A model generated the notes under the pieces. That model saw nothing but the letters and a program-made list of their open reading frames with translations, was not told the origin of the DNA and made no database searches. Shown in pieces: positions 27,915-32,649 of a DNA stretch of 64,000 nt. Source of the stretch: Myxococcaceae bacterium (GTDB taxonomy: Bacteria > Myxococcota > Myxococcia > Myxococcales > Myxococcaceae); NCBI GenBank assembly GCA_016793095.1, contig JAEUJQ010000059.1:62001-126000 (forward strand). Direction: 5' to 3'. The position numbers were made by a program, and so were the translations under genes. How positions within the stretch are numbered: position 1 is the first letter of the stretch; every line of letters starts with the position of its first letter.

Positions 27915-28532
27915 TCACCGGTCGCGGCGATCGCCGATCACGCGCGCCGGGACGCCGCCGACGATCGCCCACGCCGGCACGGCGCTCGTCACCACGGCGC
28001 CCATGCCGATGACCGCGTGATCGCCCACCGTCACCCCATCGGTGATGCCCGCGTTCGCGCCGACCCACACGTCGATCCCCAGCGTGATGCCGCGGGAGGT
28101 GACCGGCTGCTCGCGGATGAGACGGTCAGGTGCGACCTGGTGATCGAACGCGTAGAGCGTGGCGCCGCTCGCGATGCGGCAGCCGTCGCCGATGGTGATG
28201 CCCACCGCGCCGCCGTCGAGGCTCGCGCGGGCGTTGATGCTGACGTCGGCGCCGATGCTGAGCGGCCCGTGAAGGAACGCGTGGGCGGCCACCGTGGAGC
28301 GCGCGCCGATGCGAATCGGGCGCCCCAGCTGCGCGAAGATGCCGGCCTCGGGCGCGATGAAGCAGTCTTCGGCGAGCGTGACCGTCTCCTCGCGCATGAG
28401 CCGCGCCTGCACCTCCTGCTGCCACGGGCGCGCCCACACGAGGTGCTTCTCCTTCAGCGAGGCGTAGAGCCACGGCATCCACGAGAGGCGGCGCTTGTGC
28501 TGCTCGCGGAACTCGGCCGGAGACTCGTTCAT
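27915..28532 (-). CDS. Hexapeptide-repeat acyltransferase (left-handed beta-helix)
   Basis: 205 aa. Residues 60-200 show hexapeptide repeats [LIV]-G-x-x-x-x (IRIGARSTV, LSIGADVSI, GITIGDGCRI, GITLGIDVWVGANAGI, VTVGDHAVIGMGAVV), with a His in LYAFDHQVAP in the position of the catalytic His of O-acetyltransferases, and the usual VGGVPARVIG end. Likely an acetyl-CoA-dependent O-acetyltransferase on a sugar, cytoplasmic. Its ATG overlaps the stop of the upstream retropepsin-like gene (TGATG). Confidence 0.85.
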   Translation of the reverse strand: MNESPAEFREQHKRRLSWMPWLYASLKEKHLVWARPWQQEVQARLMREETVTLAEDCFIAPEAGIFAQLGRPIRIGARSTVAAHAFLHGPLSIGADVSINARASLDGGAVGITIGDGCRIASGATLYAFDHQVAPDRLIREQPVTSRGITLGIDVWVGANAGITDGVTVGDHAVIGMGAVVTSAVPAWAIVGGVPARVIGDRRDR

Positions 28533-28915
28533 CACCGGGACCGGCCGCGGAAGCCCTTGAGCGGGACCGCGTGGAGCCGCTCGAGCGCCTTCCTCCGCGA
28601 GTCGACGGCGAACCCGGTGTTCTCCAGAGGGACGACGCCCAACAGGGGCTCGGCGTCATCAGGCGCGAAGATCGCGTGGCAGACCGTCTCCTGGCCCATG
28701 AACTTCGCGCTGACGAAGCGGTGGTCGAAGACCTCGACGCGCCCGTCAGCCAGCTCGCAGTCGAACTTCCCCTCGAGCGCCACGCCTGGCTTCCTGAGCG
28801 CCTTGCCCGGCACGAAGCAGTGCAGCGCGCCGGTGTCGACGAGGAAGAGGCTCTCGAAGGACTTCTTCCCCTTCGTGAGTGGCTTGATCTCGTCAGTGAC
28901 GTGCGTCTGGCCCAC
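28532..28915 (-). CDS. Clan AA retropepsin-like aspartic protease
   Basis: 127 aa, the size of one retropepsin monomer. The catalytic motif is FLVDTGALHCFVP and the second conserved element is LLGVVPLENTGFAVDS, as in bacterial single-domain clan AA proteins; it should work as a homodimer. The role of these short proteins is not known. Coupled by a one-base stop/start overlap to the acyltransferase gene. A TM segment or signal peptide is absent, so it is cytoplasmic. Confidence 0.75.
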   Translation of the reverse strand: MGQTHVTDEIKPLTKGKKSFESLFLVDTGALHCFVPGKALRKPGVALEGKFDCELADGRVEVFDHRFVSAKFMGQETVCHAIFAPDDAEPLLGVVPLENTGFAVDSRRKALERLHAVPLKGFRGRSR

Positions 28916-29876: not shown

Positions 29877-31076
29877 TCAGGGCACGACGCGCGAGAACGA
29901 GGCGTAGTGATCGTCGGACCAGTAGCGCTCGCCGTTCGCGCCGGTGACGATGCGGCGGGCTCCGCGCGTGCGCTCATTCGGAGTCACCACCGTGTACTCG
30001 CGGTAGTAGCCGCCGGGCCGGTAGGGCAGCCGACCCTCGCGGTTCTTGAACTCGATGCCGTCTCGCTCGAACGGGAACGGCCCCTTCGCGTCGATGAGGC
30101 GCAACGTCTCATGCGCTTCGGGCGGCAGCTCGGAGAGGCGGATCGTCGCCTCGGCGGTGTCCTTTGCGCGCGGCGGCAGCGGGGCCTCGGTCTCCTTCGG
30201 GGTCTCCGCTGGCTCCTCGGGAGCCGTGCGCCCGAGCACCGCGGCGCGGAACCTGTCCTCTCCCAGCTCGCCGCCCGTGGGGAGGCCCTGGAGCTCGGCG
30301 GCGATGCGCTCGAGGCGGTTGTCCGGGTCCGGGTGCGTCGAGAAGAACTCGGGCGTGCGGCCGCCCCCCGCGGCCTTGAGCACCCGCATCACCTCGCCCA
30401 TCTGTCGGGCGTCGTAGCCGGCCTCGTGCATGAACCGCACGCCCAGCTTGTCGGACTCGAGCTCGTCGTCGCGCCCGAACTTCATGGTGATGAGCTGTGC
30501 CGCCGCCGCCGCGAGCGCCGCGTTCGCGCGCGCGTTTCCCGGCCGGTCCGGATCCGACGTGGCCACCACCGTCGCGCCCACCAGCCCGGCCGTGAGATCG
30601 GCCTTCGCGAGGCGCTCGGCGCCGTGCCGCGCGACGACGTGCGCCACCTCGTGCCCGAGCACCCCCGCGAGCTGCGCCTCGTTCTGCATGCGGCCGAGCA
30701 GCGCCTCGGTGATGAAGATCGGCCCGCCCGGCAGCGCGAAGGCGTTGACGGTGCGCCGATCGGCCAGCACGGTGAACTTGAACGGGTACTTCGTGCGTGC
30801 CGCGGCGCTCTTCGAGGCGACGCGCAGACCGACCTGCTCGACGTAGCGGGCGAGCGCGTCGTCCTTCGTCGCGCCCCCGAACTGCCGCGTGAGCTGCGGG
30901 GCGGTGGCCAGGCCGAGCGACACCTCCTGCTGCTCGGTCAACTTCACGTACTGCGTCTCGCCGGTGAGCTCGTTCGTCGTGCGTCGCGAGAGGTAGGTCG
31001 CGACCGACACGCCCGCGATGATGAGTCCGATGACGAGCCGCGCGCCGCTGCTCCGCTGTCGCTGTTGCCAGGCCAT
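29877..31076 (-). CDS. Membrane-anchored M48 metalloprotease fused to an RNase Sa/T1-like ribonuclease domain
   Basis: 399 aa. N-terminal TM anchor (about 13-29), then an M48 zinc protease domain with HEVAH at 142-146, the third ligand region DELESDKLG (205-211), and a GRTPEFFSTHPDP segment. A linker follows (about 278-308). Residues 309-399 align closely in motif order with Streptomyces RNase Sa: LSELPPEA, GPFPFERDGIEFKNRE, GGYYREYTV, RTRGARRIVTG, DDHYASF. By that alignment the catalytic residues are Glu360, Arg371, Arg375 and His390, all conserved. The anchor suggests a periplasmic location. No barstar-like inhibitor gene is adjacent. The RNase part spans about 29880-30152. Confidence 0.88.
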   Translation of the reverse strand: MAWQQRQRSSGARLVIGLIIAGVSVATYLSRRTTNELTGETQYVKLTEQQEVSLGLATAPQLTRQFGGATKDDALARYVEQVGLRVASKSAAARTKYPFKFTVLADRRTVNAFALPGGPIFITEALLGRMQNEAQLAGVLGHEVAHVVARHGAERLAKADLTAGLVGATVVATSDPDRPGNARANAALAAAAAQLITMKFGRDDELESDKLGVRFMHEAGYDARQMGEVMRVLKAAGGGRTPEFFSTHPDPDNRLERIAAELQGLPTGGELGEDRFRAAVLGRTAPEEPAETPKETEAPLPPRAKDTAEATIRLSELPPEAHETLRLIDAKGPFPFERDGIEFKNREGRLPYRPGGYYREYTVVTPNERTRGARRIVTGANGERYWSDDHYASFSRVVP

Positions 31077-31137: not shown

Positions 31138-31536
31138 TCACCGCTGGGCGTGCGGCAGCTGGCGCATGGACCACGCCAGGGTGAGCCAACCGCCGAGCTG
31201 GGCGAGGCCGCCGAAGGGGGTGAGCGCGCCGAGCCCGCGCACGCCAGTGACGCCCATCACGTAGAGGCTGCCTGAGAAGACGACGATGCCGGCGAGGAAC
31301 AGCCCGGCGGCCACGCGGGGCCCTCTCGTCGGCACGTGGTGGGCGACGATGGCTGTGAGGCCGAGCGCGAGCGCGTGGACGAGGTGGTAGCGCGCTCCGG
31401 TTTCCCACCAGCGCAGCCGGTCTGCCGCGTCCGCGAGGCCCTCGACGGCGTTCTTGAGCGCGTGCGCGCCGAGGGCGCCGAGGGCGACTCCGAAGAAGGC
31501 GCTGGCAGCGCTCAGCATGCCGATGGTGCGGTGCAT
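31138..31536 (-). CDS. DUF423 membrane protein (YgdD/TMEM256-like)
   Basis: 132 aa, four predicted TM helices. The DUF423 signature is clear: FGVALGALGAHALK near the start, the YHLVHALAL helix, FSGSLYVM and TPFGGLAQLGGW. Small inner-membrane protein of unknown role. It lies 61 bp upstream of the M48/RNase gene on the same strand and could be co-transcribed. Confidence 0.9.
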   Translation of the reverse strand: MHRTIGMLSAASAFFGVALGALGAHALKNAVEGLADAADRLRWWETGARYHLVHALALGLTAIVAHHVPTRGPRVAAGLFLAGIVVFSGSLYVMGVTGVRGLGALTPFGGLAQLGGWLTLAWSMRQLPHAQR

Positions 31537-31753: not shown

Positions 31754-32500
31754 TCAGCCCTTCACGACAGGGCAGCCCCAGCCGTCGTAGCTGCCCTCGA
31801 GCGCCAGGATGACGTCGAGCACCTCGGCGACGAAGGCGTCCGCCTGGCCGTCGGCGAGGGCGTCGTCGCGGTGGAACTGCAGGCCCACCCGACCGTCTTC
31901 GCGGGCCTCGGGCTCGTCGGTGTCGAAGCCGGCGGCCTTCAGCCGCGTCGCCGCTTCCTGTGCCTGGCCGGTGGTCTCGAAGAAGGCGAGGTGATCGACC
32001 GTGCGGGCCACCGTCAGCACGTCGCCGGCCTGCTGCAGTTGCTCGAGCAGCGAGCGGTTCGCGATGGCCTGGTACGAATACGGGTCCGGGTAGAGGAACT
32101 CCGTGTACATGCCCCAGTCGGGGTCGTCGGCCGCGAGGTACTCGAGCGTGTACTCGCCGAGGTCGCCGACGAGCCCCTTCAGGTCGTCCAGCTTCGGGCC
32201 GCTCTCGCGGGGCAGGTAGAAGAAGAACTCGGTCGCGCCGCGCGTCACCAACCGCCCTACGAACAGCGCGTCGGTCCTGGCCGTCAGCGCGTCGACGAGC
32301 CGGTCTTCGAGAGCGCCCATGGCCTCCAGCTCGGACGCGTCTCGCAGTCCGTCTGGCCGGGGCGTGAGCAGCGGCACCCGCAGCTGCAGCCTCAGCGGGT
32401 GCGATGCGGCCGGCTCGGCGTTCAGGTCCACGACGAACGAGGCGGGGTGCTCATCGAGGTTCGTCAGGTAGAAGCCGAAGTTCGGTTGCCAGCGGGACAT
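31754..32500 (-). CDS. DUF695 domain protein with RraB-like C-terminal domain
   Basis: 248 aa. Residues 1-125 have the DUF695 pattern (WQPNFGFYLTNLDEHPASF; late FFFYLPRESG). Residues 130-248 resemble RraB/DUF1260, the RNase E regulator fold: TVDHLAFFETTGQAQEAATR, AAGFDTDEPE, then VGLQFHRDD. This pairing is seen in other bacteria. If the RraB-like half is functional it would modulate RNase E-type mRNA decay; that is inference from fold. ATG 32500 has no good ribosome-binding site; GTG 32509 is an alternative. Confidence 0.7.
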   Translation of the reverse strand: MSRWQPNFGFYLTNLDEHPASFVVDLNAEPAASHPLRLQLRVPLLTPRPDGLRDASELEAMGALEDRLVDALTARTDALFVGRLVTRGATEFFFYLPRESGPKLDDLKGLVGDLGEYTLEYLAADDPDWGMYTEFLYPDPYSYQAIANRSLLEQLQQAGDVLTVARTVDHLAFFETTGQAQEAATRLKAAGFDTDEPEAREDGRVGLQFHRDDALADGQADAFVAEVLDVILALEGSYDGWGCPVVKG

Positions 32501-32649
32501 GGGGCTCACCGTACCGCAGCGGGCTGTCGCGCGGGCTTTCGTCTCGGGGCGCCTGTCACGCGAGACCGTCGGTGCGAGGTCACTGCCGGGCTTGCCTCAC
32601 CTGCCGTTGGCGTCGCCCCGTCAGTCCGACTACCCTCGACGAGGGGCTC

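What the first reader, a model, noticed from the sequence alone, without database searches (positions are those of the whole stretch)
29877..31076. Membrane-anchored M48 protease fused to an RNase Sa/T1-like nuclease domain
The sequence shows HEVAH plus a TM anchor, and a C-terminal block whose motif order matches Streptomyces RNase Sa with its Glu, two Arg and His catalytic residues all in place (Glu360, Arg371, Arg375, His390). RNase Sa-type enzymes are secreted guanyl-specific RNases normally countered by barstar; I see no barstar-like gene nearby. A periplasm-facing RNase tied to a protease could be a cell-kill, predation or RNA-scavenging enzyme, or a toxin released by the M48 domain.
Basis: partly seen in the sequence, partly recalled or inferred. 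Interest (0 to 1): 0.78.

Follow-up and report, generated by a model that had tools for sequence, protein, structure and literature searches.

The report
Membrane protease fused to barstar-matched RNase
A myxobacterial membrane protein really does join an envelope-type M48 protease to an intact RNase Sa-type ribonuclease in one chain, and all seven relatives whose ribonuclease domain looks intact also carry a barstar-family inhibitor gene while the one relative with a broken ribonuclease has none, so it looks like a new kind of tethered RNase from which the cell must protect its own cytoplasm.

Summary
Confirmed. The ORF at 29877-31076 (minus strand, 399 aa) is one chain: signal anchor, Peptidase_M48 (E 5.8e-38), short linker, PF00545 ribonuclease (E 2.9e-21). 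E360, R371, R375 and H390 are as stated. The RNase domain models as RNase Sa2 (TM 0.93). It is not an assembly accident: the fusion occurs in all seven held genomes of its genus and in one genome of another genus. The eight M48 domains form one clade (100/100), sister to exported M48 lipoproteins. No such fusion was found in the 56 RNase-bearing genomes sampled from two other phyla. Two relatives have precisely lost the native barstar gene; one of them has also lost RNase catalytic residues, the other has an unrelated barstar. Every genome with an intact RNase domain has a barstar. Best reading: an inner-membrane-anchored, periplasm-facing protease/RNase, restrained in the cytoplasm by barstar. 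The physiological role (RNA clearance, scavenging or damage response) is inferred. A polymorphic-toxin reading is disfavoured, because the tip does not vary and the locus is stable. New variant of a known kind.

The parts
29877..31076 (-). M48 metalloprotease-RNase Sa fusion gene, 399 aa
   Evidence: open frame ATG to stop; both domains by Pfam; conserved as a fusion in seven genomes of the genus and in G126
30987..31046 (-). hydrophobic signal anchor, about residues 11-30, no lipobox Cys and no Cys in the whole protein
   Evidence: hydropathy; Cys count 0 in all seven full-length fusions
30297..30849 (-). M48 domain (residues 76-260): HEVAH 142-146, predicted third zinc ligand E205, HP plug H248-P249 with R254
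   Evidence: Pfam E 5.8e-38; 3c37 E 1.3e-30 and BepA 6sar E 6e-24 in PDB; positions; plug described for BepA in PMC7950410
30153..30227 (-). variable Pro/Glu-rich linker (residues 284-308)
   Evidence: identity 38-58% among the well-aligned genus members versus 79-88% in the flanking domains; absent in G126
29880..30152 (-). RNase Sa-type domain (residues 309-399), catalytic E360, R371, R375, H390; guanine-recognition stretch FKNRE 343-347
   Evidence: Pfam E 2.9e-21; PDB RNase Sa E 6e-31; model pLDDT about 73-94 over the domain, Foldseek 1pyl TM 0.93
31138..31536 (-). upstream gene, DUF423 membrane protein, 61 bp before the fusion; conserved partner of the locus
   Evidence: Pfam DUF423 E 5.4e-26; same order in L012, L013, L014, L015, L108
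27915..28535 (-). hexapeptide acyltransferase, next conserved gene downstream of the fusion in the genus (two extra genes intervene here)
   Evidence: Pfam Hexapep; directly after the fusion in L012-L016 and L108

Best explanation
A single-pass membrane protein of the cell envelope that carries two enzymes. The N-terminal signal anchor is predicted to hold it in the inner membrane with the rest of the chain in the periplasm. The first domain is a BepA/LoiP-type M48 metalloprotease with the conserved HP plug. The C-terminal domain is a catalytically complete guanyl-preferring RNase of the Sa/barnase kind. A barstar made in the cytoplasm from another locus binds any chain that folds before export, so that only the exported RNase is active. 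The most likely job is to destroy RNA that appears in the periplasm (from lysed neighbours or prey, from phage, or leaking from the cell itself), next to a protease that clears damaged envelope proteins. Shown: the fusion, the fold, intact catalytic residues, conservation, and the co-distribution with barstar. Inferred: topology, RNase activity, binding to barstar, and the physiological role.
For: Domains and residues; model. Fusion in G000-G006 and G126; M48 domains monophyletic 100/100. Purifying selection: dN/dS roughly 0.2 in the RNase domain, like the M48 domain. Sister M48 proteins carry lipoprotein signals (LALAACARNPVTGKR) directly before the same start of the mature domain, so the domain is extracytoplasmic. 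Barstar: one in the own genome; an orthologous family in G000, G003, G004, G005, G006, G007 at 59-71% that keeps the DxxxD motif. In G126 an ortholog (46%, E 1.7e-29) starts next to the fusion. In G002 the barstar is cut out between its two neighbours and the RNase has lost the R371 and H390 equivalents; in G001 it is cut out as well but another barstar is present. By Pfam, barstar is present in 10 of 12 RNase-bearing and 17 of 183 other Myxococcota genomes, Fisher p 2.7e-8, not corrected for kinship. RNase and barstar also co-occur in 10 of 11 genomes of other taxa.
Against: No activity, localisation or binding was measured. The barstar gene is unlinked in the genus. G007 keeps this barstar family with an RNase that is not fused, so the barstar predates or is independent of the fusion. 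G001 relies on a barstar of another subfamily that could be immunity to something else. Positive charge on both sides of the anchor leaves topology less than certain. The RNase tree does not unite the G126 RNase with the genus, so the RNase could have been joined twice.
Confidence: 0.68

Rival explanations
1. Protease-gated release: the M48 domain, when its plug opens under envelope stress or on cell damage, cuts the linker of its own chain and frees the RNase as a diffusible effector against neighbours or the damaged cell.
For: The linker is variable and open in sequence. BepA with the H246N plug mutation loses its C-terminal tag, apparently by autoproteolysis (PMC7950410), and the plug His is conserved here as H248. 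Metallopeptidases that release C-terminal toxin domains are known in polymorphic toxins (PMC3482391).
Against: G126 has almost no linker. No conserved cut site in all members. The releasing peptidase of polymorphic toxins is another zincin family. No delivery module is seen.
Confidence: 0.13
2. A toxin of the polymorphic or contact-dependent kind, used to kill competitors or prey, with barstar as immunity protein.
For: PF00545 occurs as the tip of an RHS-type protein next to a barstar in the relative G007 (L011, L063) and in G133. Barstar is the usual immunity protein of such toxins (PMC3482391). Adjacent barstar in G126.
Against: The RNase tip is the same in all genus members and evolves at the rate of the M48 domain. 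The locus is stable, between DUF423 and an acyltransferase gene. No RHS, secretion or adhesion module; barstar unlinked in the genus.
Confidence: 0.1
3. The C-terminus faces the cytoplasm, and the protein is a membrane-bound cytoplasmic RNase kept in check by barstar, with the protease destroying barstar on a signal.
For: Barstar is cytoplasmic and is conserved with the intact RNase. Arg pairs follow the anchor.
Against: Closest M48 relatives are exported lipoproteins. N-terminal tails carry 2-4 positive charges, and G126 has three before the anchor and one after it.
Confidence: 0.06
4. The RNase domain is only an RNA- or protein-binding appendage without catalytic function.
For: G002 keeps the domain without two catalytic residues.
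Against: All other members keep all four catalytic residues and the guanine-recognition stretch. In G002 the domain evolves about twice as fast and the barstar gene is gone, as expected if activity was lost.
Confidence: 0.03

Closest known systems
RNase Sa / Sa2 / Sa3 of Streptomyces (PF00545)
   Same: Fold (TM 0.93 to Sa2), about 53-57% identity, the four catalytic residues and the guanine-recognition stretch
   Different: Those are free secreted enzymes of about 96 residues with a disulfide; this is the C-terminal domain of a membrane-anchored protease and has no Cys
Membrane-anchored or secreted RNase-barstar pairs of other bacteria (L008, L017, L019, L128 and others)
   Same: Anchor or signal, linker and RNase domain, with a barstar in the genome in 10 of 11 cases examined
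   Different: None has a protease domain between anchor and RNase; in some the barstar lies beside the RNase gene
BepA / LoiP / YcaL M48 proteases of E. coli
   Same: M48 catalytic domain, HExxH, HP plug, predicted extracytoplasmic place
   Different: BepA has a C-terminal TPR domain and LoiP and YcaL are lipoproteins without an extra domain; here an RNase domain takes that place
Polymorphic toxins with barnase-like tips and barstar immunity (PMC3482391)
   Same: RNase at the C-terminus, barstar partner, a metallopeptidase upstream in the chain
   Different: No delivery module, constant tip, stable locus, different metallopeptidase family

Membership tests
PF00545 ribonuclease, RNase Sa group | sequence profile above gathering score | tested here: met
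   76.3 bits against 24
PF00545 ribonuclease, RNase Sa group | catalytic Glu, two Arg and His in place | tested here: met
   E360, R371, R375, H390; not met in the relative G002
PF00545 ribonuclease, RNase Sa group | RNase Sa fold | tested here: met
   Foldseek 1pyl TM 0.93, rmsd 1.2 A
PF00545 ribonuclease, RNase Sa group | guanyl-specific RNase activity | not testable with these tools
   needs an assay; recognition stretch FKNRE is present
PF00545 ribonuclease, RNase Sa group | barstar-type inhibitor in the producer | tested here: met
   one PF01337 gene in the genome; orthologs in the genus and beside the fusion in G126
Peptidase family M48 | profile above gathering score, HExxH, third zinc ligand | tested here: met
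   131 bits against 20.3; H142, E143, H146 and E205
BepA (equivalog) | NCBIfam equivalog cut-off and TPR domain | tested here: not met
   128 bits against 570; match covers only the protease part of the model
LoiP/YcaL M48 lipoproteins | lipobox cysteine | tested here: not met
   no Cys in the fusion; LoiP model 44.9 bits against 365
Polymorphic toxin system | variable C-terminal tip and N-terminal delivery module | tested here: not met
   tip conserved at 78-93% among intact genus members; stable locus; no delivery domain
Polymorphic toxin system | immunity gene directly next to the toxin gene | tested here: inconclusive
   unlinked in the genus, adjacent in G126
Barstar (PF01337), for L001 | profile match and DxxxD interface motif | tested here: met
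   40.4 bits against 23.4; motif kept in the alignment

The most novel reading that the evidence does not exclude
A stress- or damage-triggered envelope device in which the M48 protease senses misfolded or damaged envelope protein and, by unplugging, cuts its own chain and releases an active RNase, with barstar setting which cells survive.
Probability: 0.12. Interest if true: 0.85.

Novelty: new variant of a known kind. Interest (0 to 1): 0.52.

Why it matters
Both domains are textbook families, but no paper in the searched library describes them in one chain. The fusion ties RNA degradation to envelope proteolysis in a predatory lineage. It also offers a natural experiment: two separate losses of the native barstar gene, one with loss of the RNase active site and one with another barstar present, make the claim that the exported RNase endangers its owner directly testable. 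It shows, too, that lack of a neighbouring barstar does not mean lack of an antidote.

Tried and rejected
Chance or artefact: rejected, because the fusion recurs in eight genomes. Fusion by frameshift or assembly error: rejected for the same reason; only G004 is split over two contigs, whose overlapping ends differ slightly, so that genome is treated with care. No antidote: rejected. First count of barstars by Pfam said that G126 lacks one; reading the contig showed a divergent ortholog that scores only E 0.019 in Pfam, so Pfam counts are lower bounds. Wider spread of the fusion: 398 Pseudomonadota and 396 Actinomycetota genomes gave 35 and 21 with PF00545; no M48 match was found in any RNase locus that was fetched, and the RNase ORFs not fetched are at most 284 aa. 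Plasmids gave M48-only matches, none covering 80% of the fusion; viral contigs gave none. Known defence systems: no PADLOC match. RNase tree for the origin of the domain: too few columns to resolve. The full-length model is poor over the protease (pLDDT about 40-75, alignment too thin there), so no statement is made on the contact between the two domains. Literature searches for M48-RNase fusions and for barstar in myxobacteria found nothing.

Full report
What is there. The minus-strand ORF 29877-31076 encodes 399 residues. It has a hydrophobic anchor near residues 11-30, a Peptidase_M48 domain at 76-260 (E 5.8e-38), a short Pro/Glu-rich linker and a PF00545 ribonuclease domain at 307-397 (E 2.9e-21). 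By sequence the last 91 residues match RNase Sa and Sa2 at E 6e-31. The RNase part of the AlphaFold2 model is confident (block means mostly 80-94), and Foldseek puts RNase Sa2 first (TM 0.93, 1.2 A); the protease part, modelled at low confidence, still points to 3c37 and BepA.

The fusion is real and inherited. All six other held genomes of the genus carry it at 67-81% identity; in G004 it is broken over two contigs. A genome of another genus in the family, G126, carries it too (L080). The M48 domains of the eight fusions form one clade with 100/100 support, and their sister group is a set of M48 lipoproteins of about 500 residues that carry another C-terminal region. Among well-aligned genus members dN is about 0.03-0.18 and dS 0.27-1.12 in the RNase domain, close to the M48 domain, while the linker varies freely. 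The order DUF423, fusion, acyltransferase is conserved in the genus. In 398 Pseudomonadota and 396 Actinomycetota genomes PF00545 occurs in 35 and 21, and no fusion to M48 was found.

Place in the cell. The sister proteins have lipoprotein signals that end just before the conserved start of the mature domain, so this M48 type is exported. In the fusions the lipobox is gone, there is no cysteine at all, and the hydrophobic stretch looks like an uncleaved anchor. A periplasm-facing, inner-membrane-anchored protein is the best inference; it was not tested by experiment. The HP plug that gates the BepA active site (PMC7950410) is present as H248-P249, with R254.

The antidote. The own genome has one PF00545 gene, this one, and one barstar gene, on contig C47. 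A blast search finds orthologs of that barstar in G003, G004, G005, G006 and in the sister genus G007, but not in G001 or G002. In G126 the gene directly beside the fusion, on the opposite strand, is an ortholog at 46% identity, E 1.7e-29. In the genus the barstar gene follows a fatty-acid-desaturase-like gene. In G002 and in G001 that desaturase gene is present with the usual next gene, only about 36 and 26 bp away, and the barstar is missing from between them. G002 is the one genome whose RNase domain has lost the equivalents of R371 and H390 and evolves about twice as fast. Its closest relative by the M48 tree, G004, has an intact RNase domain and the barstar. G001 has an intact RNase domain and a barstar of another subfamily, L058. 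So seven of seven genomes with an intact fusion have a barstar, and the one with a broken RNase has none. Over 195 Myxococcota genomes, Pfam barstars occur in 10 of 12 genomes with PF00545 and in 17 of 183 without (Fisher p 2.7e-8, not corrected for kinship).

How it probably works. Barstar in the cytoplasm covers the RNase of chains that fold before export; the exported chain, held at the membrane, is an active RNase beside an envelope protease. In the sister genus G007 the RNase is a small anchored protein without a protease (L008), and similar anchored forms occur elsewhere, so the fusion can be seen as an anchored RNase that shares a chain with a protease. What RNA it meets is not known. 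Clearance or scavenging of RNA in the periplasm of a likely predatory, lytic lifestyle is the plainest reading. Release of the RNase by the protease is possible, since BepA with an altered plug seems to trim its own C-terminus, but G126 does almost without a linker.

Compared with what is known. The RNase domain is a member of the RNase Sa group by every feature that could be tested. The protease is an M48 peptidase but not BepA (TPR domain and equivalog cut-off not met) and not a LoiP-type lipoprotein (no lipobox). It is not a polymorphic toxin by the defining features tested. Zhang et al. 2012 (PMC3482391) describe barnase-like tips, barstar immunity and another metallopeptidase as releasing peptidase, and do not mention M48. 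No paper on an M48-RNase fusion was found in the library; papers outside it were not searched.

Limits. Most of these genomes are metagenome-assembled, so absence of a gene is weaker evidence than presence; the two barstar losses rest on gap-free gene order within contigs, but a barstar elsewhere in an unassembled part of G002 cannot be excluded (listed completeness 100%). The RNase tree cannot say whether the G126 RNase and that of the genus were joined once or twice.

Noticed in passing
window 31754-32509 (-): Two genes upstream of the fusion lies a DUF695 plus RraB protein (RraB is named for an inhibitor of RNase E). It is also next to the locus in L014; whether it has to do with the RNase is unknown.
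   Followed up: partly
window 28532-28915 (-): Small protein with a weak match to a retropepsin-like aspartyl protease (E 1.6e-4, below the cut-off), inserted with an alpha/beta hydrolase gene between the fusion and the acyltransferase gene that directly follows it in other genus members.
   Followed up: no
L178 1461-1498 and L180 2541-2568: Two clean losses of the native barstar gene between conserved neighbours, in G002 and G001, with different outcomes for the RNase.
   Followed up: yes
L011 and L063 (G007:C159): RHS-type protein with a C-terminal PF00545 RNase and an adjacent barstar: a probable polymorphic toxin and immunity pair in the sister genus; a similar pair is in G133 (L082, L085).
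   Followed up: partly
L106:1156-1515 (-): Barstar ortholog that Pfam's barstar model misses (E 0.019); barstar counts made with Pfam alone are too low.
   Followed up: yes
L034 and L007 (G004 contigs C402 and C351): The two contig ends that split the fusion overlap but differ in sequence, which suggests mixed strains or two copies in that assembly.
   Followed up: no
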